Both the position numbers and the translations under genes were made by a program. Below, one piece after another: positions 1 through 12,612 of a stretch of DNA of 12,612 nucleotides. The stretch's first letter is position 1. Every line of letters starts with the position of its first letter. Origin of the DNA: Clostridia bacterium (GTDB lineage Bacteria; Bacillota_A; Clostridia; Christensenellales; Aristaeellaceae); NCBI GenBank assembly GCA_017398245.1, contig JAFQGN010000067.1, forward strand, positions 1 to 12,612, given 5' to 3'. A model generated the notes under the pieces. The model did not search any database. It worked only from the letters and a program-made list of their open reading frames with translations, and was not told the origin of the DNA.

Positions 1-1
1 C

Positions 2-79
2 TGGACGGCGGACCCAGACGGCAACCGCATCGAGATCATGGAGATCAGGCCCGAATCTCCGCAGGCGCAGTGGAAGTAA
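2..79 (+). CDS. Glyoxalase/VOC-superfamily protein, C-terminal fragment
   Basis: Only the last 25 codons are present, ending in TAA at 77-79. The readable peptide WTADPDGNRIEIMEIRPESP matches the usual C-terminal end of vicinal-oxygen-chelate (glyoxalase I-like) domains. In these the DPDGNxIE motif leads into the last strand, and its glutamate is normally a metal ligand. The family includes lactoylglutathione lyases, antibiotic-binding proteins and dioxygenase-like enzymes, so the substrate cannot be told from this piece. The gene begins outside the window. The next gene starts 137 bp downstream on the same strand. Confidence 0.75.
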   Translation, partial: WTADPDGNRIEIMEIRPESPQAQWK

Positions 80-83
80 AAAC

Positions 84-98
84 AAAGCGGGCGCTTTT
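84..98 (+). terminator. Weak candidate terminator after the VOC gene
   Basis: AAAGCG (84-89) and CGCTTT (92-97) form a short inverted repeat beginning 4 bp after the stop codon, followed by TTAT. The stem is only five or six pairs, so any termination would be weak. Confidence 0.3.
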
Positions 99-157
99 AT
101 CGGCCGGGTCATGAGAAACGGCTGATTTACGCATGCATTGCGAAAATTTGCATCACA

Positions 158-185
158 CGCGGGCGGCGCGCATACGTCGCCCGCG
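158..185 (+). promoter_or_regulatory. GC-rich hairpin in the leader of the secreted-protein gene
   Basis: CGCGGGCG (158-165) pairs perfectly with CGCCCGCG (178-185). The stem can extend inward by a G-U and two further pairs around a CGCATA loop. It lies 15 bp upstream of the AAGGAGG ribosome binding site at 201-207. There is no T-run, so it is not a classical terminator. A role in mRNA stability or translation is possible but unproven. Confidence 0.35.
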
Positions 186-216
186 CATTCCGTACCCCCG
201 AAGGAGGAACACACAA

Positions 217-1560
217 ATGACGAAAAGAATTCTTGCCCTGTGCCTTTGCCTGATGCTGGCTATGTGTATGCCTGGCTTTGCGCAGATGGCCTCGCAGGGG
301 TATTCGCTGGAAGGACTGGAGCGGTATTCCTCCTTCATTGCAGACGAAGAAAGCGGCGAATGGAGCGTTTCCGACCCGCTGTATGCCGCGGTGCAGGACG
401 CCGTGGCCGCGGGCGAAGTGAAAAATGCCGCAAAGGACGGGCTGGCGGTGTATCAGCTGCGCCTGTGTGGCAACGAGAAGACCGGCACGCTGCGCCCGGA
501 GATCGAGATCCATTACATCGCCAGGAACCCCATCGGCGTGCAGGCGGTGAGCATTTTCACCGGCGGCGCGCGCTATGATTTTGCGGCCAAGGGTGTTTCC
601 GCCCAGTTTGGCGGGCAGCGCGCCGAGCAGATCGTTCTGCCGGTGGACGACATGGCCGTGCTGAAGGCGATCGCCGGGGCCGAAGAGCTGGAGCTGATCC
701 TGCACGGCGCAAGCGATATCTACCGCACCAAGCTGTCCCTTTCCGCCGAAGCGAAGAACGCCAAGGCCGCTCTGGAGCAGCTTTCGCTGCGCTGCAATGC
801 GCTGATAGGCGAACTGGAAGCCCTGAACGCGGGCAGCTATCGGCTTTGGGATCTTTCCCGCGCCGAATGGGAGGCTGCGCTGGGCTTTGCGCCCGCTTGC
901 ACGGTTTCCGAAGCGCAGGAGGCGAGCATGCTCGCCTTTGGCGATAAGGGCGATGCGGTGGAACAGCTGCAGGCATTGCTTGCGCAGGCCGGGTTCTTTG
1001 CCGGCGCGGAAGAAAAGGAGTACGGCGCTAAGACCGCAGCAGCCGTTGCGCGCGCGCAGGAATATTTCGGCCTGATCGTGACCGGCAGCGCAGACGGCGC
1101 GCTGATCGGCTGTCTGCAGGGCGAAACTGCCCCGGTGCGGGAAAAGACGGAAGCCGAAGTTGAGCTGACCGCGCTGGGCGATGCGGCGATCGGCGTGGAT
1201 CGCTGGTGGATAGCGCAAAAGGTGAACGCTTCCGCATCGAGCGCCGCGCTCATCTGCCCGGACAAGGGCAATGTGTTCGCCGTGTGCGAAGGCCGCATCG
1301 AAAACAGGGGCGGCAGCGAGATCAGCCTTGGCTGGACGATCACGGGCGAGCTGGTGGTGAACGGATCCATCCGCTATGCGTGCACGCTGCGCGCAGAGAG
1401 CGACGCGGGCGAGGGCTTTGGCAGCTCTCTTTTGCCGCTGGCCGCGAGCCGGCTGATCGTAGCGGCGGAGCTCCCGCAGGGCGTGCTGGAGAATGCGAGC
1501 TCTGCCGTACTGGTGCTCAGCGACGGCACAAACAGCATGGAATATACGCTGATCGGCTGA
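217..1560 (+). CDS. Secreted protein with a peptidoglycan-binding-like domain
   Basis: The predicted protein has 447 residues. The ATG at 217 is chosen because AAGGAGG (201-207) sits 9 bp upstream and a typical Sec signal peptide starts there: basic TKR, a hydrophobic core rich in Leu, Cys and Met (residues 5-18), and a likely cleavage site after GFA (residue 22). An in-frame upstream ATG at 133 would add an Arg-rich tail with no ribosome binding site. Residues about 25-230 are not recognised. Residues about 241-302 look like a PG_binding_1 (peptidoglycan-binding-like) helical domain: GDKGDAVEQLQALLAQAGFF, then YGAKTAAAVARAQEYFGL and VTGSADGALIG. The C-terminal part (about 310-447) is rich in beta-strand-like segments and could be another cell-surface domain. 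No catalytic domain is evident. The likely location is the cell envelope or outside the cell. The gene stands alone, ending at a strong terminator 11 bp downstream. Confidence 0.8.
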   Translation: MTKRILALCLCLMLAMCMPGFAQMASQGYSLEGLERYSSFIADEESGEWSVSDPLYAAVQDAVAAGEVKNAAKDGLAVYQLRLCGNEKTGTLRPEIEIHYIARNPIGVQAVSIFTGGARYDFAAKGVSAQFGGQRAEQIVLPVDDMAVLKAIAGAEELELILHGASDIYRTKLSLSAEAKNAKAALEQLSLRCNALIGELEALNAGSYRLWDLSRAEWEAALGFAPACTVSEAQEASMLAFGDKGDAVEQLQALLAQAGFFAGAEEKEYGAKTAAAVARAQEYFGLIVTGSADGALIGCLQGETAPVREKTEAEVELTALGDAAIGVDRWWIAQKVNASASSAALICPDKGNVFAVCEGRIENRGGSEISLGWTITGELVVNGSIRYACTLRAESDAGEGFGSSLLPLAASRLIVAAELPQGVLENASSAVLVLSDGTNSMEYTLIG

Positions 1561-1570
1561 TCAGATCCAT

Positions 1571-1608
1571 AAAAGACAGGCTCTTTCGCACGAAAGGGCC
1601 TGTCTTTA
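1571..1608 (+). terminator. Rho-independent terminator of the secreted-protein gene
   Basis: AAAGACAGGCTCTTTCG (1572-1588) is complementary to 1591-1607 over its whole length with a single T-G wobble. This gives a stem of about 16 pairs with a GCAC loop, flanked by A's before and T's after. It starts 11 bp after the stop codon. The symmetry would also allow some termination from the opposite side. Confidence 0.85.
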
Positions 1609-1826
1609 TGTGAATCACCCTGGGAGGGGCATTAGACGTGCGGAAGGGACTGATTTTTCGTTGCACGTCTGTGCAGGGGGTGTAAGTTTGGCTGAACGGT
1701 TGCGTATTTTTCATTATGTATAAAAAGCGGGCGCACCGGCAGGAACTTTGCGTTTTGTAGCGAATACTTAACGATAATATGGGGAGGTATGCCCTGCGGC
1801 ATGCGTCCTGTCAACAGGAGAGAGAC
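1609..1826 (+). promoter_or_regulatory. Leader region upstream of the nucleotidyltransferase gene
   Basis: This 218-bp gene-free stretch holds several structures. An 8-bp perfect inverted repeat AGACGTGC (1634-1641) / GCACGTCT (1663-1670) encloses a 21-nt loop. An AT-rich patch at 1700-1724 (TTGCGT, then TTATGTATAAA) is a possible but poorly spaced promoter. A second patch has TTGCGT at 1748-1753 and GATAAT at 1773-1778 with a 19-bp spacer. The segment 1741-1766 starts AGGAA and ends GCGAATA. It resembles, from memory, leader motifs seen upstream of various clostridial genes; this is unverified. The true ribosome binding site is AGGAGA at 1816-1821. No transcription start can be assigned with confidence. 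Confidence 0.35.
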
Positions 1827-2600
1827 ATGAAAGCGATCATCCTTGCCGCCGGATATGCGACGCGGCTGTATCCGCTCACGAAAAACACGCCGAAGGCGCT
1901 GCTGCCCATCGCCGGGCGGCCTATGCTGGACTGGTTTTACGATAATCTTGCGCAGACCGGCCGTTTCGACGGCGTTTACGTCGTCTCCAACCATCGCTAT
2001 TACGAACCCTTCTGCCGCTGGGCGGAAGAGGCGCGCAAAAATTGGCCGAACATCCCGCTGGAAGTGATCGACGACGGCACGAAGGATGAGACCGAGCGCC
2101 TGGGCGCAGTGGGCGATATCCGCTGCGCGATCGAAAAGGCCGGGATCGATGACGATGTAATGGTCGCCGCTTCGGATAATTTCATCACCTTCTCGCTGGA
2201 GGGCTTTTTGGCCGAATTTGAACGCACCGGGTGCGATACCCTTCTGGCATGGCATATGCCCGATTACGAAGACCGCAAGAACATGGCCATCGCCACGCTG
2301 GACGAGACGGGCAAGGTGGTGCGCCTGCACGAAAAGCCGGCCGAACCCGAAACGGACATTGCCATTTTCGCCATTTACCTGTACCGCAAGGACACTCTGC
2401 CCATGATCGGCCAGTTTTTGGACGAGGGCAACAACGGCGACAGCCCCGGAAGGTTCCCGGCATGGCTGTATACGAAAAAGGACATGCGCGTATGGTTCTA
2501 TCCGGGCGAATGCGTGGACATCGGCACGCACGCGCATCTGGAAGAGGTGCACGCGCGATTCCCGGATGAGGAATCCGTGCGCAAAGTGATGGTGGACTGA
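1827..2600 (+). CDS. Sugar-1-phosphate nucleotidyltransferase (NTP_transferase family)
   Basis: The predicted cytoplasmic protein has 257 residues. The start ATG at 1827 lies 5 bp after AGGAGA, and the conserved N-terminus MKAIILAAGYATRL begins exactly there; an in-frame ATG at 1779 would add 16 unconserved residues. The family joins a sugar 1-phosphate to an NTP, giving an NDP-sugar and pyrophosphate. Visible motifs are the nucleotide-binding GYATRLYPLT loop with R13, PKALLPIAGRPML with K23, the metal-site candidate D117 in AASDNF, HEKP after the central sheet, and VDIGT near the C-terminus. The length and the lack of an acyltransferase domain resemble short RmlA/GalU-like enzymes rather than GlmU. 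The nucleotide and sugar cannot be assigned. The gene has its own leader and is followed by a hairpin terminator, so it may be transcribed alone, although the next three genes may serve related phosphosugar metabolism. Confidence 0.85.
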   Translation: MKAIILAAGYATRLYPLTKNTPKALLPIAGRPMLDWFYDNLAQTGRFDGVYVVSNHRYYEPFCRWAEEARKNWPNIPLEVIDDGTKDETERLGAVGDIRCAIEKAGIDDDVMVAASDNFITFSLEGFLAEFERTGCDTLLAWHMPDYEDRKNMAIATLDETGKVVRLHEKPAEPETDIAIFAIYLYRKDTLPMIGQFLDEGNNGDSPGRFPAWLYTKKDMRVWFYPGECVDIGTHAHLEEVHARFPDEESVRKVMVD

Positions 2601-2613
2601 TAACGAACACATA

Positions 2614-2656
2614 CAACGGGCAGAGCGCATCTGCGTCTGCCCGTTTCCGGTTTTGG
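2614..2656 (+). terminator. Probable intrinsic terminator after the nucleotidyltransferase gene
   Basis: AACGGGCAGA (2615-2624) pairs perfectly with TCTGCCCGTT (2636-2645). Inside it CGC/GCG adds three more pairs after one bulged G. A mixed T-rich tract (TTCCGGTTTT) follows. The T-run is imperfect, so read-through into the HAD phosphatase gene is plausible; no convincing promoter is visible between the hairpin and that gene. Confidence 0.6.
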
Positions 2657-2684
2657 AACGAGCTGCTAAAGGAGGGACGCCGCT

Positions 2685-3491
2685 TTGCCGACCGCTGCGC
2701 TGATTTACGATTTTGACCACACGCTTACCCCGCGCAATATGCAGGAATTCGGCCTGATGGAAGAATTACGCTCGGACCCGGACGATTTCTGGAACGAGTG
2801 CAGGCAGTTTGCGCTGAAATACAATGCCGACGGCATCCTTTCCTATATGGCTGTCACGCTCTCTCGCGCAAAGAGGCTGGGTATCACGCTGCGGCGCGAG
2901 GACTTTGTGCGCCTGGGCGGCACGATCGACTTTTATCCCGGGGTGGAGGAATGGTTCGGCAAGACGAAAGCCTTTGCAAAGAGCGTAGGGCTGGAACTGG
3001 AGCATTACATCATCTCCTCCGGCATGACGGAGCTGATCGAAGGCAGCCGCATCGCAAAGGAATTCAAGGCGGTGTACGCCGCATCCTATTGCTATGACGA
3101 CGACGGGCAGCCCTTCTGGCCGGCGACGGCGATCAATTACACGGCGAAGACGCAGCATCTGTTCCGCATCAACAAGGGGATTCTGGAGATCACCAACGAC
3201 CGCGACCTGAACGATTACACGCCCGAGGAGAAGCGGCGCATCCCGTTCAGAAATATGATCTATATCGGCGACGGCTACACGGACGTGCCCTGCATGAAGA
3301 TGACCAAGCAAAAGGGCGGCACGGCCATCGCCGTGTATCAGCCCGAGCACGGCGACGTGGCCAGGTCTCTGCTGCGGCAGCGAAGGGCGCATTACGCGTT
3401 GGAATCGGACTACCGCGAGGGGAGCGACCTTTGGCACGTGGTGTGCGGCATTCTGGACGACATCGCTCAGCAGGAACGCGAAAAGGCCTGA
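2685..3491 (+). CDS. HAD-superfamily phosphatase
   Basis: The predicted cytoplasmic protein has 268 residues and starts at TTG (2685), 9 bp after AAAGGAGGG (2668-2676). The conserved motif follows at once, which supports this non-ATG start. HAD motif I is DFDHTLT: D9 would be the nucleophile and D11 the acid/base. Motif II is I-S-S-G (S111/S112). Motif IV is IGDGYTD, with D196 and D200 as magnesium ligands. The long helical insert between motifs I and II (about residues 20-95) resembles a phosphoserine-phosphatase-like (C1) cap. HAD phosphatases remove phosphate from small metabolites; the substrate is unknown. It is the first gene of a run in which the sugar kinase follows after 21 bp and a P-loop kinase-like gene after 13 bp more. 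Confidence 0.85.
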   Translation: MPTAALIYDFDHTLTPRNMQEFGLMEELRSDPDDFWNECRQFALKYNADGILSYMAVTLSRAKRLGITLRREDFVRLGGTIDFYPGVEEWFGKTKAFAKSVGLELEHYIISSGMTELIEGSRIAKEFKAVYAASYCYDDDGQPFWPATAINYTAKTQHLFRINKGILEITNDRDLNDYTPEEKRRIPFRNMIYIGDGYTDVPCMKMTKQKGGTAIAVYQPEHGDVARSLLRQRRAHYALESDYREGSDLWHVVCGILDDIAQQEREKA

Positions 3492-3512
3492 CAGAAGCAA
3501 AAGAGGTTGAAT

Positions 3513-4400
3513 ATGTATACTATTGGTATTGATATTGGCGGCACGGCCGTGAAAATGGGCGTGATCGGCCGCAACATAGAGCCCATCTGGAGACACGAGA
3601 TCCCCTTTGAGCCGGGCGACCCGGAGGCGATGCTGATGAAGATCGCCCAGTGTGTGCGCGAGGCGGGCGAGCGGTATCCGCTCAACCGCGTGGGCGCAGC
3701 CTGTGCAGGCTCGGTGGATCTGCGCACCGGGCAGGTATGGGGCGATAACATCGCCTTTCATGGCGTTCCCGTGCGCGATATATTGACGGAAGAGCTGGGG
3801 CTTCCCGTATGGGTGGACAACGACGCGCAGGCGGCCATGCAGGCCGAATGGACAAGCGGCGCATGCAAGGGCGCAAACCACGCGGTGTTCATTTCGCTGG
3901 GCACGGGCATCGGCGGCGCGCTGGTGCTCAACGGTCAGCCATACCGCGGGCGCGCGAACGGCGGCGCGGAGCTGGGACACATCATCGTACATGCCGGGGG
4001 CGAGGAATGCTCCTGCGGCATGCGCGGCTGCTATGAAGCCTACGCCTCTGCAACAGCGCTGGCCCGCATGGCCGGCAGGCCCGCGCGCGAGGCGATCGAC
4101 CTGGCGCGCAGCGGCGAGCGGCGCATGCGCGAGGTGTTCCGCCAGTATTGCCATGAGATCTGCCTGGGCATGATCAGCCTGCTCTCTATTTTTGAGCCGG
4201 AGGTGCTGGTCATCGGCGGCGGCATCAGCGGGGCAGGAAGATTTCTTTTGGACACGATCCATGAAGAGATGGACAAGATCAACCCGTGGGTGTTCTCTTC
4301 CGACGTGCTGATCACCCTTGCGCGCCACAAGAACGATGCGGGCATCATCGGCGCGGCGGCGCTGGCGGAATACTACATCGACGACGGCATGCAGGGCTGA
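3513..4400 (+). CDS. ROK-family sugar kinase
   Basis: The predicted protein has 295 residues. The ATG at 3513 lies 6 bp after AAGAGG (3501-3506); the in-frame TTG at 3507 abuts that site and is less likely. ROK kinases phosphorylate sugars such as glucose, fructose, N-acetylmannosamine or allose with ATP. Visible motifs are the phosphate loop DIGGTAVKMG (7-16), VDNDAQAAM with catalytic D104, LGTGIGGAL, and E153-L-G-H156. The zinc-binding signature follows, with C166-S-C168 and C173 then E175. Length and motifs fit an intact kinase, and there is no N-terminal helix-turn-helix, so it is not a ROK repressor. Glucokinase-like activity is the default guess. It probably shares a transcript with the HAD phosphatase upstream and the P-loop protein downstream. 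Confidence 0.9.
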   Translation: MYTIGIDIGGTAVKMGVIGRNIEPIWRHEIPFEPGDPEAMLMKIAQCVREAGERYPLNRVGAACAGSVDLRTGQVWGDNIAFHGVPVRDILTEELGLPVWVDNDAQAAMQAEWTSGACKGANHAVFISLGTGIGGALVLNGQPYRGRANGGAELGHIIVHAGGEECSCGMRGCYEAYASATALARMAGRPAREAIDLARSGERRMREVFRQYCHEICLGMISLLSIFEPEVLVIGGGISGAGRFLLDTIHEEMDKINPWVFSSDVLITLARHKNDAGIIGAAALAEYYIDDGMQG

Positions 4401-4413
4401 AAAGAGGCGCGTC

Positions 4414-5004
4414 ATGGCACAGGGAATTGCTTTTTGCGGGTTGAACGGTTCGGGAAAATCCACGCTCGCCTATGCGCTGGCCAAAGCGACCGGCTATTTT
4501 GAAATGGATGCGGAGGATTACTATTTTCCGGAGCAAAGGGATTCCCGGCAGCAGGCGCTGGAGGGCGCGGAAAACATCAAAACTTACCATTTGGGAGATG
4601 TTCCTTTCTCTGTTCCACGCACAAAGGACGAAGTGCAGGCGGCGATGCTGGCAGATATGCAGGCGCATCCGCAGTTTGTGCTGGCCGGGGTGACAATGCG
4701 CTGGCGCAGCGAAATTTTGGAGCGCGTCGGGCTCGTGTTTTGGGTGCAGACGCCGCCCGAGGAGCGCGTGCGCCGCATACAGATGCGCGAAGAATTCCGC
4801 TTTGGCGGCAGGGTGCTGCCCGGCGGCGATCTGTACGAACAGCAGAGCAAATTTCGCAAAATGGCGTTTGAGCGCGACATTGCCGCAGTGGAGCAGAGCC
4901 TGCAGGGACTCAAGTGCCCGGTGGTGCGCTTGGACGGCACGCTGCCGGTGGAGCAGAACCTGCAAACCATCCTTGAGCGGCTGGTTTGCATGACCGAAAA
5001 ATAA
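4414..5004 (+). CDS. Small P-loop kinase-like NTPase
   Basis: The predicted protein has 196 residues. The ATG at 4414 follows AAAGAGG (4401-4407) by 6 bp. The upstream in-frame region overlaps the ROK gene and encodes no conserved sequence. A Walker A motif GLNGSGKST lies at residues 9-17 right after the first strand, as in adenylate kinase, shikimate kinase and other small-molecule kinases. D28/D31 in EMDAEDYYF could mark the acceptor-side position after strand 2. LVFWVQTPPEERVRRIQMRE resembles the later strand and arginine-rich lid of these kinases. The size fits a P-loop kinase, but the substrate is unknown. It ends a three-gene run with a phosphatase and a sugar kinase. The stop codon's last base is the first base of the terminator hairpin. 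Confidence 0.75.
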   Translation: MAQGIAFCGLNGSGKSTLAYALAKATGYFEMDAEDYYFPEQRDSRQQALEGAENIKTYHLGDVPFSVPRTKDEVQAAMLADMQAHPQFVLAGVTMRWRSEILERVGLVFWVQTPPEERVRRIQMREEFRFGGRVLPGGDLYEQQSKFRKMAFERDIAAVEQSLQGLKCPVVRLDGTLPVEQNLQTILERLVCMTEK

Positions 5005-5045
5005 AAAGTCCCCGTCAGACGAGCGTCTGACGGGGACTTTTTGTG
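5004..5045. terminator. Strong bidirectional terminator between convergent genes
   Basis: AAAAGTCCCCGTCAGACG (5004-5021) is perfectly complementary to 5024-5041, a near-continuous 18-bp inverted repeat. On the plus strand it ends in TTTTT. On the minus strand it ends in TTTTTATTTTT, also a good U-tract. It therefore probably stops both the rightward kinase operon and leftward transcription from the radical SAM gene. Confidence 0.9.
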
Positions 5046-5056
5046 CATTTGTGAGG

Positions 5057-5188
5057 GAAACACGGGGCCTCCGCTGTGCAGACGCGGCTTTTTCGGATTT
5101 ATGGGACCGAAACACGGAGGTTTCCGCTGTGCAAGGGGAGTTTTTCCGGATTTGCGAGGCCGAAATGCGGATTTGACCGGAGTTTTTA
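5057..5188. repeat. Degenerate 52-bp tandem repeat, about 2.5 copies
   Basis: Unit A (5057-5108, 52 bp) and unit B (5109-5161, 53 bp) both start GAAACACGG, share CCGCTGTGCA, a TTTTTC/TTTTTCC tract and CGGATTT, and end GG(A)CC. A partial third unit (5162-5188) starts GAAATGCGG and runs into the radical SAM stop codon. By eye, A and B are about three-quarters identical. No coding frame fits. The repeat lies between the radical SAM gene and the bidirectional terminator, so it would be in that gene's 3' untranslated region. Confidence 0.7.
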
Positions 5189-6055
5189 TACACCGGTGCC
5201 GTCGAACAGCGGGATCTCGGTGACGCCGGAGGAATCGGTTTCCTGAAAGAAGCCGTTTTCGAAGCCAAGCGATTCGGCGGCGGAGACAGCCTGTTCATAC
5301 TCTTCCTCGGTGAGCATGCGGTCCAGCGGTGGGTATTTGAACGCATCGCCGAAGGGGGTGTACTGGGCCATCAGGCTCAGCCATGCATCCGGAAGCGCGC
5401 GGCGGATCCAGACAAGTACTCGTTTTGTCTCCTCGATCTGCCCGGGGAGAACGAGGTGGCGCACGATCATGCCCTTTTTCATGAGGCCGTCTTCGCCGAT
5501 GACAGCCGCGCCGGTCTGCCGCGCCATTTCGCGCAAGGCTTTGGAGGCGTGGGCGAAATAATCCGGCGCGCCGGAATAAAGGCCGGAGACGGCGGAGCTC
5601 ATATACTTCATATCAGGCAGATAAATATCGATAAGGCCTTCCATAAGACGTATATTTTCAGCTTTTTCATAGCCGGAGCTGTTCCAGACAACGGGGATTT
5701 CGGGGCGATAGATCTCCAAAGCGCGCATGATGGCGCTCTGAAAATGGGTCGGGTTCACCAGATCGATATTTTTCGCGCCCTGATCTTCCAGTTCGCGGAA
5801 AATATCAGCCAGACGCTGCGCGCTGATCTTTTTGCCGATACGACCGCGGGAAAGATCAAAATTCTGGCAATAGACGCATTTGAGCGAGCAGCCGGAGAAG
5901 AACACCGCGCCGGAGCCGAGCTCGCCGCCGATGATGGGCTCTTCGCCAAAATGCAGCGCGGCGCGCGCGACGACGGCTTCTTCCGGCATGGAGCAGTATC
6001 CCGTTTGCGCGGCGCGGTCGATATTACAGTTACGGGGACAAAGCGTGCAGAGCAT
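5186..6055 (-). CDS. PflX-like radical SAM protein
   Basis: The predicted protein has 289 residues. It starts at ATG (6055) with the near-consensus ribosome binding site AAAGGCGG 7 bp upstream. The radical SAM motif GCSLKCVYCQN places the [4Fe-4S] ligands at C56, C60 and C63. The spacing and surroundings fit the pyruvate-formate-lyase-activating-enzyme-like PflX group. An N-terminal set of cysteines (C3, C6, C10, C21) is also typical of this group and may bind another metal. The end, GVTEIPLFDGTGV, matches the family's usual finish, so the gene looks complete. Radical SAM enzymes cleave S-adenosylmethionine to make a 5'-deoxyadenosyl radical. The physiological target of this group is poorly known, and no glycyl-radical enzyme is encoded nearby. 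The gene is on the same strand as the ABC pair but 335 bp from it, with palindromic repeats between, so co-transcription is uncertain. Confidence 0.85.
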   Translation of the reverse strand: MLCTLCPRNCNIDRAAQTGYCSMPEEAVVARAALHFGEEPIIGGELGSGAVFFSGCSLKCVYCQNFDLSRGRIGKKISAQRLADIFRELEDQGAKNIDLVNPTHFQSAIMRALEIYRPEIPVVWNSSGYEKAENIRLMEGLIDIYLPDMKYMSSAVSGLYSGAPDYFAHASKALREMARQTGAAVIGEDGLMKKGMIVRHLVLPGQIEETKRVLVWIRRALPDAWLSLMAQYTPFGDAFKYPPLDRMLTEEEYEQAVSAAESLGFENGFFQETDSSGVTEIPLFDGTGV

Positions 6056-6078
6056 GGGAAAACCGCCTTTCTGAGAAG

Positions 6079-6140
6079 AGACGCCGGAGGGCGCTGCCCT
6101 CCGGACTCCTGCTTAAGGGGCATTGCACCTTAAGAATCCC
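6079..6140 (+). repeat. Double-hairpin palindromic element, copy 1
   Basis: CCGGAGGGC (6084-6092), loop GCT, and GCCCTCCGG (6096-6104) form a perfect 9-bp hairpin. Then come ACTCCTGC and a second hairpin, CTTAAGG (6112-6118) / CCTTAAG (6128-6134), followed by AATCCC. The same order of hairpin, CCTGC spacer, CTTAAG hairpin and AATCCC recurs at 11637-11700. It lies just upstream of the radical SAM gene. Between it and the next element, ACAAACG (6162-6168) / CGTTTGT (6176-6182) makes a further small hairpin. Confidence 0.65.
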
Positions 6141-6191
6141 ATCTTGAATTTGGCTTATACAACAAACGCGATATACGTTTGTATGGCGTAA

Positions 6192-6287
6192 TAAATCTAA
6201 AAATAGGCTTCTTTTAGGAGGGGCTTGGGGAACCCTTTTCTTCACCTGAAGAAAAGGGTTCCCCAAATCACCCCTAAAACAGATTTA
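6192..6287 (-). repeat. Long-hairpin palindromic element, copy 1
   Basis: A perfect 20-bp inverted repeat, TTGGGGAACCCTTTTCTTCA (6225-6244) / 6247-6266, is extended outward by TTTTAG/CTAAAA and TAAATCT/AGATTTA. The plus-strand flank AGGCTTCTTTTAGGAGGGG (6205-6223) is the conserved tail, which matches copy 2 at 16 of 19 positions. Read on the minus strand the order is hairpin then tail. It lies in the 335-bp gap between the ABC pair and the radical SAM gene; that gap contains three palindromic elements and no gene. Confidence 0.75.
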
Positions 6288-6313
6288 CTCGACAGAGCAA
6301 CCAAACCCAATAC

Positions 6314-6387
6314 AGGTTTCTTTTAGAGGGGGTTCGGGGGAGACCATTTCTTTTCCCAAAGAAAAGGTCTCCCCCGAAATCGTTCTC
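6314..6387 (-). repeat. Long-hairpin palindromic element, copy 2
   Basis: TTCGGGGGAGACC (6333-6345) pairs perfectly with 6366-6378. After one mismatch TTTCTTT/AAAGAAA adds seven more pairs around a TCCC loop. The tail AGGTTTCTTTTAGAGGGGG (6314-6332) precedes it on the plus strand, and GAACGAT (minus strand, 6379-6385) lies on the other side. It begins within a few bases of the ABC stop codon and could act as a 3'-end hairpin for that mRNA, but no U-run follows, so it is not a classical terminator. Confidence 0.75.
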
Positions 6388-6390
6388 TCG

Positions 6391-8193
6391 TTAGCTTTCC
6401 TCGCCCATGGTTTCGGCACAGAGACGGGCATAGAGGCCGCCTTTGGCGAGGAGTTCTTCGTGGTTGCCGGACTCGACGATGCGGCCATGCTCCATGGCAT
6501 AGATGCAATCGCAGGCGCGGATGGTGGAAAGCCGGTGCGCGATGAAAATGGACGTGCGGCCGGCGGAGATCTTCTGGATGGAATCCTGAATAAGCGCTTC
6601 CGTATTGGAATCGATATTCGCGGTGGCTTCGTCCAGAACCAGAATGGACGGATCGTGCGCGATAGCGCGCGCGAAGGAGATGAGCTGCCTTTCGCCCGTG
6701 GAGAAGGTCGCGCCGCGCTCGGCCACCATGTGGTGCATGCCGCCGGGCAGGCTGTTCACGAAATCTTCCGCACAGGAGAGGCGGATGGCCTCGGCCACCT
6801 GTTCATCGGAAATGGGCGCGTTGATGCGCACATTATCGGCAATAGAGCCGACGAAGAGGAACACATCCTGCAGAACAACGCCGACCTGGCTGCGCAGCGC
6901 GCCGAGCTTCCATTCGCGGATGTCTACGCCATCGACCAGGATGCGGCCCTTTTGCGGTTCGTAGAACCGGCTGAGCAGGCTGATGATGGTGGTTTTGCCC
7001 GCTCCTGTCGCGCCGACGAAGGCGATCTTGTCGCCCGGCTTGGCCTTGAAGCTGACATCGCGAAGGACCCAGTCTTCATTATTGTAGGCGAACCAGACGT
7101 GGTCGAATTCGACCGTGCCGACGATGGGTTCGTCCCTGCCGGGAGCGTCGAGCTGTTCCAGATTGCCGTCGTCGTTCAGCAGAGTGAAGATGCGCTCGGC
7201 GGAGACCATGGCGGACTGGATGTTGTTGTACTTTTCAGCAAGATCGTTGATCGGCTCAAAGAACTGCTCGATATAGCTCTTGAACGCGACGATCACGCCG
7301 ACTTCGATGGCGCCGACCGCAATGCCGACCTTGTTGAAGCCGAACAGCAGAAGCAGCACGACGGCCAGCGAGGTGATAACTTCCATGACCGGGCGCAGGA
7401 AAGAATTCATGAGCACCTGGAACATGGTGGTCTTTTTGTACTTGCGGTCCAGTTCAAAGATCTCGGCATACTTTTCCTTTTCGCGGTTGAACGCCTGGAT
7501 GATGCGGATGCCGGAGAGCGATTCGGCAATGAAGCCGTTGATCTGGCCGATGAGCGCCTTCATACGCACGAAATTCTTGCGCAGGGCGTTGCGGCAGGCG
7601 ACGGAGATTATTGCGATCAGCGGGAGCACCGTGAACGAGACCAACGCCAGACGCCAGTCCATGATGAGCATAGTGGCTGTCAGGCCGATGAGCAGGAACA
7701 CATCGCGGAACAGGCCGACCAGAACATCGGTATAGAAGGAGTTGAGCTCTTCCACGTCGTTCGTCGCACGCGTGAGCAGGCGGCCGGAACCCATTTTGTC
7801 CATATCCGCAAGGGGCATGGCATGGATATGCCGGAACATCTTGCGGCGCAGATCGTCCAGAATACTCTGGCAGATGCGCGCCATAATGCGCTGCTGGAAC
7901 AGCGAGCACAGGCTGCCGGTGGCGATGACGATAAAGTAGATCAGCGCAAGGCCCCAAAGGGAATAGAGGCCGGTCTGCGCGTTGCCGGCGATGAGGAAAT
8001 CATCGATGGCGATCTCCAGAACATAGGGCTTGGCCAGATCGGACGCGTTTACCAGCAAAACGCAGGCCACGCACAGAAGGAGCATCCACATGTGGGGCTG
8101 CATCAGCTTCATCAGCGGCTTGAGCACGCTCTTGTTGGCCTTGATCCGCTTGCCGTCCGGGGTAAAGTTGCTTGTCGGGCCTCCGCGCATCAT
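6391..8193 (-). CDS. Heterodimeric ABC exporter half-transporter, catalytic Walker B subunit (BmrD-like)
   Basis: The predicted membrane protein has 600 residues: a six-helix type IV exporter membrane domain (about 45-345), then a nucleotide-binding domain (about 365-595). Walker A is GATGAGKTT with K400. Walker B ends LVLDEA with catalytic E522. The H-loop is H553. The signature motif is FSTGERQ (497-503) instead of LSGGQ, a known feature of one partner in asymmetric exporters. The start overlaps the stop codon of the upstream partner by ATGA (8190-8193), with AGGAGG 10 bp upstream, so the two are translationally coupled. It resembles Bacillus BmrD/YheH and Thermotoga TM288. The likely role is ATP-driven export of a drug, lipid or peptide; the substrate is not visible. 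A charged N-terminal extension of about 35 residues precedes the first helix. Confidence 0.92.
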   Translation of the reverse strand: MMRGGPTSNFTPDGKRIKANKSVLKPLMKLMQPHMWMLLLCVACVLLVNASDLAKPYVLEIAIDDFLIAGNAQTGLYSLWGLALIYFIVIATGSLCSLFQQRIMARICQSILDDLRRKMFRHIHAMPLADMDKMGSGRLLTRATNDVEELNSFYTDVLVGLFRDVFLLIGLTATMLIMDWRLALVSFTVLPLIAIISVACRNALRKNFVRMKALIGQINGFIAESLSGIRIIQAFNREKEKYAEIFELDRKYKKTTMFQVLMNSFLRPVMEVITSLAVVLLLLFGFNKVGIAVGAIEVGVIVAFKSYIEQFFEPINDLAEKYNNIQSAMVSAERIFTLLNDDGNLEQLDAPGRDEPIVGTVEFDHVWFAYNNEDWVLRDVSFKAKPGDKIAFVGATGAGKTTIISLLSRFYEPQKGRILVDGVDIREWKLGALRSQVGVVLQDVFLFVGSIADNVRINAPISDEQVAEAIRLSCAEDFVNSLPGGMHHMVAERGATFSTGERQLISFARAIAHDPSILVLDEATANIDSNTEALIQDSIQKISAGRTSIFIAHRLSTIRACDCIYAMEHGRIVESGNHEELLAKGGLYARLCAETMGEES

Positions 8194-9926
8194 TCGGCAT
8201 CCGCCTCCTCTCCCTTTTGCTGTTCGTGGAAGATGTGGGCGTATTCGCCGTTGAGAGCGAGGAGCTGTTCGTGCGTGCCGCGTTCGACGACCTTGCCGTG
8301 CTCCATGTAGAGGATCTCGTCGGCGCCGAGCACCGCAGAGAGGCGATGCGCGATGACGATGACGGTGCGGCCTTCGAACTCAGTCTTGAGCGCATGCAGG
8401 ATGCGCGCTTCGGTGGCGGTATCCACTGCGCTGAGCGTATCGTCCAGCAGCAGGATCTTCGGCCCGCGCACGAGCGCCCTTGCGAGGGAAGTGCGCTGTC
8501 TCTGGCCGCCGGAGAGGTGGTTTCCGCGCTCGCCGCACAAGGTGGCAAGCTTTTCGGGCATGTTTTCGATATCTCCGGTCATGCCGGCAATATCCAGCGC
8601 CCGGCGGATCTCCTCTTCGCTCGCGCCGGAGAAGAAATCGACATTTTCCTTGATAGAGACATTGAAGAGGAAGCCGTCCTGCGGGACATAGCCGCAGGCG
8701 TCGCGCACGGATGCGGCGGGAATATCGCAAATATCGCGCCCGTCGACGAAGAGCTGGCCTCTTTGCGGCTGCAAAATCTTGAGCAGAAGCTGCAACACGG
8801 TGGATTTACCGCTGCCCGTGGGGCCGACGATGCCGAGCATGCCGCCGGCGGGCACATGGAAGCTGATATCTTCCACCGCAGGAGTAGTGCCGTCAAAATG
8901 GGTGTAGGAGAGGTTCCTGGCTTCGATCTCGCCGAAGACCGGGGTGTTGTCCTCTCTGCGTTCGAATTCGGGGATCTCCTCGATATCGAACAGGGCCTGC
9001 AGCCTCTTAAAGCTGGCCATGCCCCTTTGCAGCATGTTCACGATGCGGCCGATAGCAGTGACCGGATTGACGATCATGGTGAGGTAGGAGTTGAAGGCGA
9101 CGTAATCGCCAACGCTCATTTCACCGGCGAGCACGAGATTGCCGCCATAGACGATGCCGATGACGTAGCTCAGGCCGAAGAGCAGCTTCATGATGGGCTG
9201 CGTGAGGGCCGAGGTATCGTTCAGATCGATGTTCGCCTTGCGCATGGTCTCGCTTTCCTGGGCGAAGACCTCGTTCTGCGCTTTTTCCTGCGCAAACGCC
9301 TTGAGTACGCGCATACCGTTGATGTTTTCCTGCACATGGCCGGAAATATTGGTGAACAACTCCTGCACGCGGCGGGATTTACGCTGCACCTTGCGGCCGA
9401 TATACGTGATCAGGAACACTGCAACAGGGATAGGCGCGAGGGCGAGGAAGGTGAGCCTTCCGCTGATGCCGGCAGCCATGGCCGTGATGGAAAAGCTGAT
9501 GGACACCAGCGCGTTGAGCGACTGGGAGAGCACCATGCTCATCATCATACGCACGGCGTTGACATCATTGATGGCGTAGGCCATCATGTCGCCGGAGCGA
9601 TGGGTACCGTAAAACGAGATGGGCAGCTTCTGGAGATGGTCATACAGCTGGTTTCGCAGCCATATTTCCAGCTCACGCCCGTTGCCGATGATGAAATAGC
9701 GCCAGGCGAGCCTTGTGAGGAACACGCCGATGGCGATCCACAGGATCATCATCGCCTTGGGAAGAAATTGCCCAAACGTGACGCCGCCAAGCGCAGCGTC
9801 TTCGAGCAGGTCGACCGCTTCGCCGAGTACGATCGGCGCGCGGGTGGAGATCCACGAGCACAGTATCAAAAAGAACGCGCCCGGGAAGTACTTCCAGCCG
9901 TACTTTTTTAGAAAGGGTTTCAGCAT
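8190..9926 (-). CDS. Heterodimeric ABC exporter half-transporter, degenerate Walker B subunit (BmrC-like)
   Basis: The predicted protein has 578 residues: a membrane domain (about 1-320), then a nucleotide-binding domain (about 335-565). The start MLKPFLKK at 9926 is chosen because AAGGAGG lies 11 bp upstream; the open frame runs further upstream, but those residues are not conserved. Walker A is GPTGSGKST with K374. The signature LSGGQRQ is canonical (471-477), and the H-loop is H527. Walker B ends LLLDDT: D496 replaces the catalytic glutamate. That substitution marks the degenerate ATP site in BmrCD, LmrCD and TM287/288. By that model, the weak site pairs this subunit's Walker A/B with the partner's FSTGERQ, and the active site pairs the partner's E522 with this subunit's LSGGQ. 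It is the first gene of the ABC operon; its leader carries a palindromic element. Confidence 0.92.
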   Translation of the reverse strand: MLKPFLKKYGWKYFPGAFFLILCSWISTRAPIVLGEAVDLLEDAALGGVTFGQFLPKAMMILWIAIGVFLTRLAWRYFIIGNGRELEIWLRNQLYDHLQKLPISFYGTHRSGDMMAYAINDVNAVRMMMSMVLSQSLNALVSISFSITAMAAGISGRLTFLALAPIPVAVFLITYIGRKVQRKSRRVQELFTNISGHVQENINGMRVLKAFAQEKAQNEVFAQESETMRKANIDLNDTSALTQPIMKLLFGLSYVIGIVYGGNLVLAGEMSVGDYVAFNSYLTMIVNPVTAIGRIVNMLQRGMASFKRLQALFDIEEIPEFERREDNTPVFGEIEARNLSYTHFDGTTPAVEDISFHVPAGGMLGIVGPTGSGKSTVLQLLLKILQPQRGQLFVDGRDICDIPAASVRDACGYVPQDGFLFNVSIKENVDFFSGASEEEIRRALDIAGMTGDIENMPEKLATLCGERGNHLSGGQRQRTSLARALVRGPKILLLDDTLSAVDTATEARILHALKTEFEGRTVIVIAHRLSAVLGADEILYMEHGKVVERGTHEQLLALNGEYAHIFHEQQKGEEADAE

Positions 9927-9963
9927 GCGTTTTCTGTCCTCCTTGCGCATGGGTTCCGTTGAG

Positions 9964-10032
9964 GAACGATGCGGGGAGGATCTTTCTTTGGGAAAAGAAA
10001 GACCCTCCCCGCACTCTTCCCAAAGAAACCAT
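9964..10032 (+). repeat. Long-hairpin palindromic element, copy 3
   Basis: GCGGGGAGG (9971-9979) pairs with CCTCCCCGC (10004-10012). After one mismatch TCTTTCTTT pairs with AAAGAAAGA around a GGGA loop. GAACGAT (9964-9970) on the left and AAAGAAACC (10022-10030) on the right match the flanks of copy 2 read in the opposite orientation. The core CTTTGGGAAAAGAAA is also shared. It lies 38 bp upstream of the first ABC start codon, inside the probable leader. Confidence 0.75.
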
Positions 10033-10095
10033 TTTGGTGGTGGTGCATAGATGCGGCGCATAGCGCCGTGGTCTTTCTTGCCCTTCCGGGAAAGA

Positions 10096-10125
10096 AGTAT
10101 AAAATTGTTCAAGGCATGCTGAAAA
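10096..10125 (-). promoter_or_regulatory. Candidate promoter for the ABC exporter operon
   Basis: On the minus strand TTTTCA (10125-10120) and TATACT (10101-10096) are separated by 18 bp, with four and five of six matches to the housekeeping sigma consensus. Transcription would start near 10089, giving a leader of about 160 nt that includes the palindromic element. The alternative is the stronger promoter at 10398-10427. Confidence 0.3.
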
Positions 10126-10273
10126 GGAGGAAATGCGTGCAAAAATGCCCGCAAAAAGCAGACAAAAGCAGCCGCGCACGGCCGTTTACAGCCCTGCGCC
10201 ATGTTTCCGTGGCCCCGCGCGTTTTTTATGCGCGGCAGCGGTGGTTTGCGCCCCGTCTTTGCCGGGGACGATT

Positions 10274-10289
10274 TGTTTCACGTGAAACA
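10274..10289. other. parS centromere site 1 (ParB/Spo0J binding)
   Basis: TGTTTCACGTGAAACA is a perfect 16-bp palindrome and an exact match to the parS consensus TGTTNCACGTGAAACA. ParB (Spo0J) loads and spreads from such sites to organise origin segregation and recruit SMC. parS sites usually cluster in the origin-proximal part of the chromosome. No parA or parB gene is in the window. Confidence 0.93.
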
Positions 10290-10300
10290 CACAGCGGATA

Positions 10301-10316
10301 TGTTTCACGTGAAACA
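10301..10316. other. parS centromere site 2 (ParB/Spo0J binding)
   Basis: This is a second identical TGTTTCACGTGAAACA, separated from the first by 11 bp (27 bp centre to centre). Being intergenic and duplicated, the pair is unlikely to be a chance or coding by-product. The spacing places the two sites about two and a half DNA turns apart. Confidence 0.93.
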
Positions 10317-10376
10317 ATCCGCCATCCTTCGCGTTTCTCCGGCTCCGCACTTAACCGAATATGGAGCCTGTCCTTC

Positions 10377-10427
10377 TTGCATCCTCAAACATTCTCTATT
10401 ATAATACCTTTAGCGTCCCTTTTGCAA
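10377..10427. promoter_or_regulatory. Symmetric, probably bidirectional sigma-A-type promoter
   Basis: TATTATAATA (10397-10406) is a perfect palindrome containing TATAAT on both strands. Rightward: TTGCAT (10377-10382), 17 bp, TATAAT (10400-10405). Leftward: TTGCAA (10427-10422), 18 bp, TATAAT (10403-10398). The rightward start would serve the beta-propeller-like gene with a leader of about 125 nt. The leftward start would cross both parS sites towards the ABC operon. The -35 boxes are only partial matches, but the -10 box is exact in both directions. Confidence 0.6.
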
Positions 10428-10448
10428 GTTTCCGCGCGCATCATGCGC

Positions 10449-10481
10449 TTCTGCAGGGGCTGTTTCTACATTATATATAGT
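10449..10481 (+). promoter_or_regulatory. Second promoter-like patch upstream of the beta-propeller-like gene
   Basis: TTCTGC (10449-10454) is followed after 17 bp by TATATA (10472-10477), within the AT-rich run TTATATATAGTATATTTTT. The -35 match is poor, so this may simply be AT-rich DNA downstream of the main promoter. Confidence 0.25.
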
Positions 10482-10536
10482 ATATTTTTCCGCATACGTG
10501 TTCCGGGGCTTCTGCCCGGGGTTTATGGAGGTTCAA

Positions 10537-11634
10537 ATGCAGGAAAAGAAACCGAGCCGCACGGGCTGGCTTCCGTCGGTTTGCATCGTTCTGCTGTGCT
10601 GTCTGATCGCATGGCTGGGCGCAAACTGGCTCGTGCCCGAAAAAACGAATTCTTTGAACGAATACATCGAGCTGCCGGCCTATGCAGGTCAGCCCTGCGT
10701 ACCGCTGGGCGACAGCGCCGCCTATTACGATGGCACCATACTGTATGCGCTACGCGAAAACGGCATGCAGCGCTGGTCGTATCTGGCGGGCGCGAACGCG
10801 GGCTTCCACACCGGCGTGGGCGGCGTGACCACATGGACCGGCGCGCAGGTCACCTTGCTGGATGAAACCAGCGGCGATACCGTCTTCAGCGTGACCATGG
10901 CGAAAAAGGTGCTTTCCGCGCGCGCGGGCAATCTGTACGTAGCCGTGTGCACCGGCGACGAGGACGACGTGACCATGATCATCCTCGACCGCAACGGCAA
11001 GCAGGTAGATTCCATCGAAAAGCCGAACCTGACCGTGCTGGATTACGGCTTCTTCAATTCCGGCAATCTCTTCTGGCTGATGACGCTTGATTCCGACGGC
11101 ACGGTGCCCACCAGCCAGCTGACCACCTACAAGCCCGGCAAGATGGAGACCGGCTCCATCATCGACAGCGAGCAGGTGGTCTACAAGGTCCTGTTCCATT
11201 CCACGAACATCCGCGCCGTGGGCACGAGCTACGCCCGCTCCTACGATTACACAGGCAAGGAGAACGCGGCCGACCGCCTGCTGGTGTACGGCTGGTATCT
11301 GCAGGATCTGTACGGCGACGGCGAAAACCCGCTGATGCTGTTCGTTCCCATGGAGGACACCGGTGGCGTTGCCTCCATTCAGGATGTGCGCCTGGTACAG
11401 GGCTCCTTTGACCGGACGATCCGCCTGCCGTATGCGTGTTTCGATGTGTTTGCGGGAAACGGCGTGGTCTACGGTTTTACGAACGATTACCTCGTTCTGG
11501 GAACCATCAACGGCTCTTCTACGACTATATATCAGCTGCCTGTGTTTGCCGAGGATGTGCTCGGCATAACGGAGGATAACAAGGCGCTGGTCGTCTCCGG
11601 CGGCAAGGTGTATCTGGTCGAGCTGCCTGCGTAA
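10537..11634 (+). CDS. Membrane-anchored extracytoplasmic protein, probably beta-propeller-like
   Basis: The predicted protein has 365 residues. The ATG at 10537 lies 5 bp after GGAGG (10527-10531); earlier in-frame starts lack a ribosome binding site. A basic N-terminus (EKKPSR) and one hydrophobic helix (about residues 11-33) predict an inside-to-outside single-pass anchor with the rest outside the cell. The outer part is a series of short strands with repeating patterns such as GTILYALRENGMQRWSY, QVTLLDETSGDTVFSVT, NLYVAVCTGD and TMIILDRNGKQVDSI. These recall PQQ-like or WD-like beta-propeller blades. It may belong to the DUF5711-type group, which I recall as a clostridial family; that assignment is from memory. 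No catalytic motif is seen. A CvpA-family gene follows 271 bp downstream on the same strand. Confidence 0.7.
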   Translation: MQEKKPSRTGWLPSVCIVLLCCLIAWLGANWLVPEKTNSLNEYIELPAYAGQPCVPLGDSAAYYDGTILYALRENGMQRWSYLAGANAGFHTGVGGVTTWTGAQVTLLDETSGDTVFSVTMAKKVLSARAGNLYVAVCTGDEDDVTMIILDRNGKQVDSIEKPNLTVLDYGFFNSGNLFWLMTLDSDGTVPTSQLTTYKPGKMETGSIIDSEQVVYKVLFHSTNIRAVGTSYARSYDYTGKENAADRLLVYGWYLQDLYGDGENPLMLFVPMEDTGGVASIQDVRLVQGSFDRTIRLPYACFDVFAGNGVVYGFTNDYLVLGTINGSSTTIYQLPVFAEDVLGITEDNKALVVSGGKVYLVELPA

Positions 11635-11636
11635 GG

Positions 11637-11700
11637 CTACGGCGGGACTCTGTCCCGCACCCTGCTTAAGGGAATTCTTCCCTTAAGAATCCCCTATTGG
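11637..11700 (+). repeat. Double-hairpin palindromic element, copy 2
   Basis: GCGGGAC (11642-11648), TCT, and GTCCCGC (11652-11658) form one hairpin. ACCCTG follows, and then CTTAAGGGAA (11665-11674), TTC, and TTCCCTTAAG (11678-11687) form a second, ending with AATCCCC. The layout is that of 6079-6140. It starts right after the beta-propeller-like stop codon and could act as a 3'-end structure, though no T-run follows. A small hairpin AGACAG/CTGTCT (11716-11730) lies further on. Confidence 0.7.
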
Positions 11701-11811
11701 GGCTTCTTGTCATCAAGACAGGCTCTGTCTCTGTCGGAGGGAACTTTTCCGGCCCACCTATACACAGCTACAATTGGAGCCCACACTGTCCCTGTTATCC
11801 GTTTCCCTAAA

Positions 11812-11880
11812 TTGAGGGGTCAAGGGGGAATCATTCCCCCTTGCAGAGGTTTCAGGGGACGGAGTCCCCTGACGTACCTC
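11812..11880 (-). repeat. Double-hairpin palindromic element, copy 3 (inverted)
   Basis: AAGGGGGAA (11822-11830), TCA, and TTCCCCCTT (11834-11842) form one hairpin. CAGGGGAC (11853-11860), GGA, and GTCCCCTG (11864-11871) form another, enclosed by GAGGT/ACCTC (11846-11850, 11876-11880). On the minus strand the order is GGGGAC hairpin, a spacer ending CTGC, AAGG..CCTT hairpin, then GACCCC. This is the layout of copies 1 and 2. It ends 12 bp before the CvpA ribosome binding site. Confidence 0.6.
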
Positions 11881-11905
11881 ATGCGTCCCCGAAAGGAGCG
11901 TGCTT

Positions 11906-12612
11906 ATGAACATTTTCGATGTGATCATTCTGGCGATCCTCGGCGTGAGCCTAATTTCAGGCATGTACAAGGGGTTTCTGGCTTCCGGCCTGACGATCAT
12001 CGGCTTTATTGCGGCTTGGGCCGGCGCGATGCATTTTTACCCACAGTTGAGCGCGGCAGTGCAATCCAACTCCGAGCTGATGGGCATGCTGCACTATTAT
12101 CTGGACGCGGGCGCGCTGTTTGAAACCGGCGCAATGGGGGAAAAGCTGGTCGGCGCGATCTCGCAGACAGAGCTTGCGCAGGCGGCGGCCTCGCTGAAGC
12201 TGCCCGCCATCATCACCGACGCGTTCCAGCAGAACGTGCTGGCGCAGAGCTTTGCTGCGCTGGACATGGCCACGCTGGCGGATTATCTGGGCCAGACGAT
12301 CTGCGGCGCGGCGATTAACGTGCTCTCGTTCCTGATCATGTTTGTTGTGAGCTATATGGTATCGCTTTTGCTGGTGAACCTGCTCAACCATGTGTTCCGG
12401 TTTCCGATATTGCGGCATCTGGACTGGCTGCTGGGCGGAGCGTTCGGCCTGGTGCGCGGCGCGGTGATCGCAGCGCTGGTCTTCTCCCTTGTGCCGATGG
12501 CGGTTTCCATGCTGCCACTGGAAGTGACCGAAGAGCTGGTGAACACTTCCTTCTTCTATGATTTCTTCTCAAAAAACAACATACTCGCCTCTCTCGTCGA
12601 GAGTGTGTTTTA
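11906..12612 (+). CDS. CvpA-family membrane protein (3' end cut by the window)
   Basis: At least 235 residues are present and the frame is still open at the window end. The ATG at 11906 lies 7 bp after AAAGGAG (11892-11898). MNIFDVIILAILGVSLISGMYKGFL is the classic CvpA/colicin V production-type start: a first helix, then a Gly-rich turn YKGF, and a second helix (about 24-42). Two more hydrophobic stretches lie at about 138-160 and 175-203, the last with GGAFGLVRGAV, the family's G-x-x-x-G-x-x-R-G pattern. Between helices 2 and 3 is an enlarged, mostly polar loop of about 95 residues. CvpA proteins are inner-membrane proteins linked to envelope stress and colicin V export in Enterobacteria; the role in Bacillota is unclear. 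Confidence 0.85.
   Translation, partial: MNIFDVIILAILGVSLISGMYKGFLASGLTIIGFIAAWAGAMHFYPQLSAAVQSNSELMGMLHYYLDAGALFETGAMGEKLVGAISQTELAQAAASLKLPAIITDAFQQNVLAQSFAALDMATLADYLGQTICGAAINVLSFLIMFVVSYMVSLLLVNLLNHVFRFPILRHLDWLLGGAFGLVRGAVIAALVFSLVPMAVSMLPLEVTEELVNTSFFYDFFSKNNILASLVESVF

What the first reader, a model, noticed from the sequence alone, without database searches (positions are those of the whole stretch)
10274..10316. Paired perfect parS sites in a divergent intergenic region
Two identical copies of TGTTTCACGTGAAACA sit 27 bp apart centre to centre, in non-coding DNA and without parA/parB beside them. Each exactly matches the Bacillus-type parS consensus. That suggests this locus is an origin-proximal ParB loading site, with a tandem arrangement that may strengthen nucleation. 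It also dates the neighbourhood: the ABC, beta-propeller-like and CvpA genes would be origin-linked.
Basis: partly seen in the sequence, partly recalled or inferred. Interest (0 to 1): 0.75.

Follow-up and report, generated by a model that had tools for sequence, protein, structure and literature searches.

The report
Paired bacterial chromosome centromere sites (parS)
This stretch holds two side-by-side copies of the DNA tag that bacteria use to pull newly copied chromosomes apart; in the related genomes checked, the same place carries the only such tags found and several times lies near the replication start, so it is a real but ordinary bacterial centromere, with an unproven hint of a rule for how such tags are spaced.

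Summary
Confirmed: two exact TGTTTCACGTGAAACA sites, 27 bp apart, intergenic, beyond chance. No genome is held for the window, so linkage was tested in relatives. At least two sites lie upstream of the right-hand gene's orthologue in 26 of 28 loci; the other two are cut off. In 15 of 15 draft genomes checked, every site with up to one mismatch is in this cluster. Sites and dnaA share a contig in 8 of 26 genomes where both were seen, 8-70 kb apart; the rest are on separate contigs. In G037 the sites lie 24 kb from the local GC-skew minimum. 40 of 40 ParBs examined keep R173/G201, the parS code. Verdict: a chromosomal parS cluster, new member of a known kind, away from parAB in relatives. Novel hint: tight parS pairs in this phylum favour half-integral helical turns (about 26, 37, 47 bp; pooled new samples p 1.8e-6), weakening to p about 0.07 when collapsed to few independent clusters and absent in viral contigs.

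The parts
10274..10289 (.). parS site 1, TGTTTCACGTGAAACA (palindrome)
   Evidence: exact match; conserved cluster in relatives
10301..10316 (.). parS site 2, identical 16-mer, 27 bp centre to centre from site 1
   Evidence: exact match; 20-nt direct repeat
10537..11634 (+). Gene of unknown function, anchor of the parS cluster in relatives. Called DUF5711-like because PF18975 (name recalled) is precomputed for some homologues; the window's own protein matches no Pfam or NCBIfam family, and 'beta-propeller' is inference
   Evidence: 163 homologues; no family; sites upstream in 26 of 28 loci; on one contig with dnaA in 13 of 53 sampled genomes that hold both
11900..12610 (+). CvpA (Colicin_V) family protein, runs off the window
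   Evidence: PF02674 E 3.9e-22; found beside the anchor gene in 7 of 7 relatives' contigs compared
8190..10202 (-). ABC exporter half-transporter 2 (ORF limits; true start probably near 10007 or below, inference)
   Evidence: PF00664/PF00005; 81% identity in G001
6391..8193 (-). ABC exporter half-transporter 1
   Evidence: PF00664/PF00005; synteny in G001, G002, G003, G015
5186..6055 (-). radical-SAM-like protein, also in the conserved neighbourhood
   Evidence: PF13353 over its cut-off, PF04055 just under; synteny in G002, G003, G008, G010, G015 (5 of 7 contigs)

Best explanation
The pair is a chromosomal parS centromere of an uncultured Clostridia bacterium (Christensenellales kin by the record titles of relatives), probably its only parS cluster and origin-proximal. 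ParB dimers, in relatives encoded away from this locus, would nucleate on each 16-bp palindrome, close into CTP clamps, slide onto flanking DNA, engage ParA, and recruit SMC. Shown here: site identity, conservation of the cluster at this place, no other sites in the relatives' draft genomes checked, dnaA or skew-minimum linkage in some relatives, parS-type residues of their ParB. Inferred: that the window's own genome is the same, and every biochemical step (known from other species).
For: Exact sites, 0 of 200 shuffles with two. At least two sites (up to 2 mismatches) upstream of the orthologous gene in 26 of 28 loci; the two without have only 653 and 386 bp upstream. 15 of 15 genomes searched: all sites with up to 1 mismatch fall in this cluster, reversed control 0. 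Same contig as dnaA in 8 of 26 genomes where I saw both, 8-70 kb apart: G003, G007, G008, G010, G014, G015, G037, G060. GC skew changes from minus to plus at dnaA in G007 and G008. G037: three exact sites at 87.3-87.4 kb of a 3.97-Mb contig, no other with 1 mismatch and one with 2 at 1.59 Mb; cumulative skew minimum of the 200 kb examined at 63.3 kb, with a cluster of near-DnaA boxes at 61.9-62.1 kb next to the anchor gene at 59.5-60.6 kb. ParB family in 15 of 15 and 60 of 60 genomes; 40 of 40 ParBs examined have R173 and G201, the parS code of PMC7383237 (passages read).
Against: The window's own genome, ParB and origin are not available. 18 of the 26 genomes with both seen have sites and dnaA on different contigs (drafts; uninformative). 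7 of 60 family genomes show no site with up to 1 mismatch, including G030, the only other genome of the nearest relative's genus, and G025 and G040, where the anchor gene sits right beside dnaA. Linkage of sites to the anchor gene is not family-wide: of 24 genomes with listed sites and a gene hit, 12 have both on one contig and 12 do not (the site list was cut short). Four of the 26 genomes listed have sites on two contigs. In G013, one of the 15, no ParB passes the cut-off. The window itself shows no minus-to-plus skew switch and one near-DnaA box, so oriC is not inside it.
Confidence: 0.92

Rival explanations
1. A twin operator: the palindromes bind a local dimeric transcription factor that controls the divergent ABC and DUF5711-like genes.
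For: The pair lies in a divergent intergenic region, downstream of a promoter-like site on the minus strand (TTGCAA-18-TATAAT, 10427-10398), so it would fall in the ABC leader.
Against: The 16-mer is the parS consensus used in print (PMC10197239). In relatives the neighbouring genes differ (ORFs near the sites match a metallophosphoesterase, metallo-beta-lactamase, amidohydrolase or M16 peptidase) and the distance from site to anchor gene varies from 173 to 4624 bp. No other copies in 15 of 15 genomes.
Confidence: 0.04
2. A site for the second ParB paralogue (Noc-like) rather than ParB.
For: A second, lower-scoring ParB-family gene is present in many of these genomes; the 10 examined mostly carry Noc-like residues.
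Against: The sites are the full parS sequence; parS and the Noc site differ at positions 1 and 6 (PMC7383237). 9 of 10 paralogues carry R201, the NBS-type residue, and none has R173.
Confidence: 0.02
3. A plasmid- or phage-borne parS rather than a chromosomal one.
For: IMG/VR contigs carry many parS-like pairs (at least 120 stretches).
Against: Relatives' sites share contigs with dnaA, one contig being 3.97 Mb. A search of plasmid records with window 8000-12612 matched 219 records, none over most of the query; the 20 shown all match within the ABC gene.
Confidence: 0.02

Closest known systems
Chromosomal parS (consensus TGTTTCACGTGAAACA; ParB/Spo0J)
   Same: Identical 16-bp palindrome; clustered sites, origin-proximal in relatives; ParB with R173/G201 in the lineage. 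Clusters within 5-40 kb are described as the usual case in bacteria, scattering as typical of few lineages including Bacilli (PMC8357415, passages).
   Different: Only 2-3 sites within about 2 kb in the 15 genomes, and parAB is on another contig or, in G037, about 160 kb away if the contig is circular. In most other tight pairs sampled a ParB-like ORF lies within 2.6 kb: one hub ORF (ParB by eye, not scored with an HMM) matches 113 of the 133 other loci.
Closely spaced parS pair of Caulobacter crescentus (two sites separated by 42 bp; PMC10387095, passages)
   Same: A tight tandem pair within a chromosomal parS set.
   Different: Spacing and phylum; the passage does not say whether 42 bp is edge to edge or centre to centre.
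Noc and its binding site NBS
   Same: Paralogous protein family; a Noc-like paralogue exists in many of these genomes.
   Different: Different half-site bases; the window's sites are parS.

Membership tests
chromosomal parS | 16-bp palindrome matching TGTTTCACGTGAAACA | tested here: met
   two exact copies
chromosomal parS | origin-proximal position | tested here: inconclusive
   met in relatives where it could be seen: 8 of 26 genomes share a contig with dnaA, the other 18 are uninformative, and G037 by skew; the window's own genome is not held
chromosomal parS | few copies genome-wide, confined to one region | tested here: met
   in relatives: 15 of 15 draft genomes, G037 at up to 1 mismatch; 4 of 26 listed family genomes have sites on two contigs
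chromosomal parS | a ParB with parS-type specificity residues in the lineage | tested here: met
   40 of 40 ParBs examined with R173/G201
chromosomal parS | ParB binding and spreading at the site in vivo | not testable with these tools
   needs ChIP-seq or a binding assay
Noc-binding site (NBS) | NBS bases at half-site positions 1 and 6 | tested here: not met
   both copies carry the full parS sequence; positions 1 and 6 distinguish parS from NBS (PMC7383237)

The most novel reading that the evidence does not exclude
Tandem chromosomal parS sites obey a helical-phase rule: neighbouring sites are kept at half-integral turns (centre to centre about 26, 37 and 47 bp, avoiding 30-34 bp), so that two ParB dimers sit on opposite faces of the DNA, presumably to let two clamps load side by side. 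The window's 27-bp pair is the 2.5-turn case.
Probability: 0.4. Interest if true: 0.65.

Novelty: new member of a known kind. Interest (0 to 1): 0.4.

Why it matters
It gives a centromere marker for an uncultured lineage known here from draft genomes: a pair of sites that can point to the origin region even where dnaA has moved (G037). It is also a natural small centromere, two or three sites in one place, unlinked from parAB. If the spacing rule holds, it is a testable constraint on how ParB clamps load at adjacent sites; why parS sites cluster and vary in number is called open in the review PMC7333895 (passages read).

Tried and rejected
Expected parA/parB/noc as the genes between sites and anchor gene in relatives; family scans of 20 chosen ORFs instead gave a metallophosphoesterase, metallo-beta-lactamase, amidohydrolase, M16 peptidase and several without a family. 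Thought the window itself might hold oriC: rejected, one near-DnaA box and no skew switch of the right sign. Plasmid collection: only ABC-gene similarity in the 20 of 219 records shown. A first try to find dnaA on the relatives' contigs failed (the seed search found none) and was repeated. Tried to collapse the spacing data to independent events: single linkage at 30% identity joins 130 of 134 loci, largely through ParB-like ORFs in the flanks, so independence can only be bracketed. Tested the spacing rule on viral contigs: it fails there (53 spacer clusters, V-test p 0.44). The genus of the nearest relative G001 holds two genomes, one without sites, so no closer dnaA-linked relative was found. 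Rfam at gathering thresholds gave nothing in the window.

Full report
1. Observation. TGTTTCACGTGAAACA occurs exactly at 10274-10289 and 10301-10316, 27 bp apart, and nowhere else in the window with up to three mismatches; 0 of 200 dinucleotide shuffles give two. The sites lie between a minus-strand ABC exporter pair and a plus-strand gene of 365 residues that I start at 10537. The two copies lie in a 20-nt direct repeat with one difference, which suggests origin by a 27-bp tandem duplication (inference).

2. Setting. The right-hand protein matches no Pfam or NCBIfam family itself. An alignment of 32 found 28 loci in genome contigs, all titled as Clostridia or Clostridiales, or as Candidatus genera several of which are named after Christensenella. 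Order in relatives: radical SAM, ABC, ABC, anchor gene, CvpA in G002, G003 and G015; the short G001 contig holds the ABC pair, anchor gene and CvpA; in G008 and G010 the ABC pair was not found, and in G007 neither it (beyond weak hits elsewhere) nor the radical SAM.

3. Conservation. 26 of 28 loci have at least two sites (up to 2 mismatches), the nearest to furthest lying 173 to 4624 bp upstream of the gene; L010 and L023, which lack them, hold almost no upstream sequence. In 15 of these 26 the closest two are within 50 bp (read). In the 15 genomes searched (15 of the 28 loci were given) all sites with up to one mismatch lie in this one cluster; the reversed-pattern control gave none. In 60 genomes of the same family 53 have sites, 1 to 7 each. 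The list of places was cut after 26 genomes: 4 of these have sites on two contigs. Linkage to the anchor gene is not family-wide: of the 24 with a gene hit, 12 have gene and sites on one contig, 12 do not.

4. Origin linkage. dnaA and the anchor gene share a contig in 13 of the 53 sampled genomes that have both, 0.1 to 42 kb apart; in five of them (G025, G040, G048, G054, G056) the gene follows dnaA within 0.5 kb. In none of these five are the sites on that contig: G025 and G040 have no site, the other three have them on other contigs. G003, outside that sample, has dnaA at 15.7-17.0 kb with a DnaA-box cluster at 15.5 kb and the sites at 27.5 kb, with the window's gene order. In all, sites and dnaA share a contig in 8 of 26 genomes where I saw places for both, 8 to 70 kb apart; in the other 18 they are on different contigs, which says nothing in drafts. 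GC skew switches from minus to plus at dnaA in G007 and G008; the other contigs show no clear switch. In G037 (3.97-Mb contig) the sites are at 87.3-87.4 kb, dnaA at 16 kb, parB at 3.899 Mb, and the skew minimum of the 200 kb examined at 63.3 kb beside near-DnaA boxes and the anchor gene; 20-kb samples along the contig are plus from 80 kb to 2.1 Mb and minus from 2.3 Mb on. There dnaA is not at the origin, as also noted for some gut bacteria in PMC10197239 (passages read).

5. ParB. TIGR00180 matches 15 of 15 genomes, 14 over the cut-off, and 60 of 60. In the one locus whose ORFs I read, a ParA-like ORF (by eye) precedes parB, which matches ParB structures. The 10 second paralogues have R201 in 9, K or R at 184 in 9, K or R at 179 in 7, and proline at 173 in 8: Noc-like with an unusual residue; the one compared matches Noc structures best.

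6. Spacing. In an order-wide sample 30 of 297 genomes have an exact pair 20-50 bp apart, with values clustered near 26, 37-39 and 47. Having fixed period 10.5 and phase 5.97 from that sample, I tested new samples with the slightly looser motif TGTTYCACGTGRAACA: phylum (35 of 398 genomes matched; 33 values, p 0.03), class of G736 (14 of 82; 9 new values, p 0.006), class of G002 (65 of 391; 53 new values, p 1.2e-4); pooled 95 values, p 1.8e-6, jitter null 0 of 5000. The phylum sample tested without the fixed phase is not significant (p 0.17). Dropped before counting: genomes already used, 8 visibly related spacers in the class sample, further pairs within G400 and G812, and one each of G439/G675 and G610/G586. 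Without the values 35-42 the pooled new samples still give p 9e-4 (54 values). Over all 126 values including the first sample: 23-29 bp 18, 30-34 bp 3, 35-42 bp 59, 43-44 bp 6, 45-50 bp 40, none at 20-22.

7. Limits of the spacing rule. It was seen after the fact in the first sample; the samples are nested groups of one phylum, so related pairs recur. Taking one pair per flank cluster (134 loci: 120 fetched stretches, G037, the window and 12 of the 15 family loci with tight pairs; three tight-pair genomes or pairs of the samples were not fetched) gives median p 2.6e-5 (51 clusters), 8e-4 (33), 0.018 (12) and 0.06-0.07 (6 to 8 clusters), and 0.01 to 0.06 for average-linkage groupings of 5 to 13; mean cosine 0.36 to 0.48 throughout. 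53 spacer clusters from viral contigs (80 of at least 120 stretches) show no such phase; their contrast with chromosomes in the 23-29 versus 30-34 ranges is not significant (Fisher p 0.12). The window's own family alone is not significant (11 values, p 0.13) and has 33, 34 and 42 bp. A founder effect with slow drift is therefore not excluded.

8. Literature. Searches (12 of 19 hits listed) listed no paper that by title or abstract start treats helical phasing of chromosomal parS pairs, in the held open-access library only. Of their hits I read passages of PMC5344682, PMC12260392, PMC10387095, PMC8299390, PMC10197239, PMC7333895 and PMC8357415. The founding survey (Livny 2007) is not held. A search for Christensenellales with parS gave one unrelated paper (listing). 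The ParB mechanism is from passages of PMC8367383, PMC7383237 and PMC7333895.

9. Verdict. It is ordinary in kind, with two mildly unusual features, its separation from parAB and its being the lone cluster, and one unproven but testable regularity in spacing.

Noticed in passing
window 9963-10020 and 10398-10427: Imperfect 27-nt inverted repeat in the presumed leader or start of the ABC pair, and a promoter-like TTGCAA-18-TATAAT on the minus strand; the parS pair would lie inside this leader.
   Followed up: no
G025, G040, G048, G054, G056: The anchor gene lies within 0.5 kb downstream of dnaA in five family genomes, where dnaN is usual (recalled); none of the five has parS sites on that contig.
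   Followed up: partly
G037:C3 (L151-L153, L201-L207): dnaA lies about 46 kb from the local GC-skew minimum and a cluster of near-DnaA boxes, which are beside the anchor gene.
   Followed up: partly
L059-L068: Noc-like ParB paralogues with proline instead of glutamine at the specificity position 173 in 8 of 10; what they bind is open.
   Followed up: no
L210-L289 (IMG/VR): Many viral contigs carry chromosomal-type parS pairs, most often 23-24 bp apart (35 of 93 pairs); one spacer type recurs 21 times.
   Followed up: partly
window 1-10000: The plus strand is G-rich (skew +0.03 to +0.14) although the genes from 1632 to 10202 look to be on the minus strand, as if they ran against replication with the origin to the left (inference).
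   Followed up: no
window 133-1560: Protein with a peptidoglycan-binding domain and a weak match, far under the cut-off, to spore cortex-lytic SleB.
   Followed up: no
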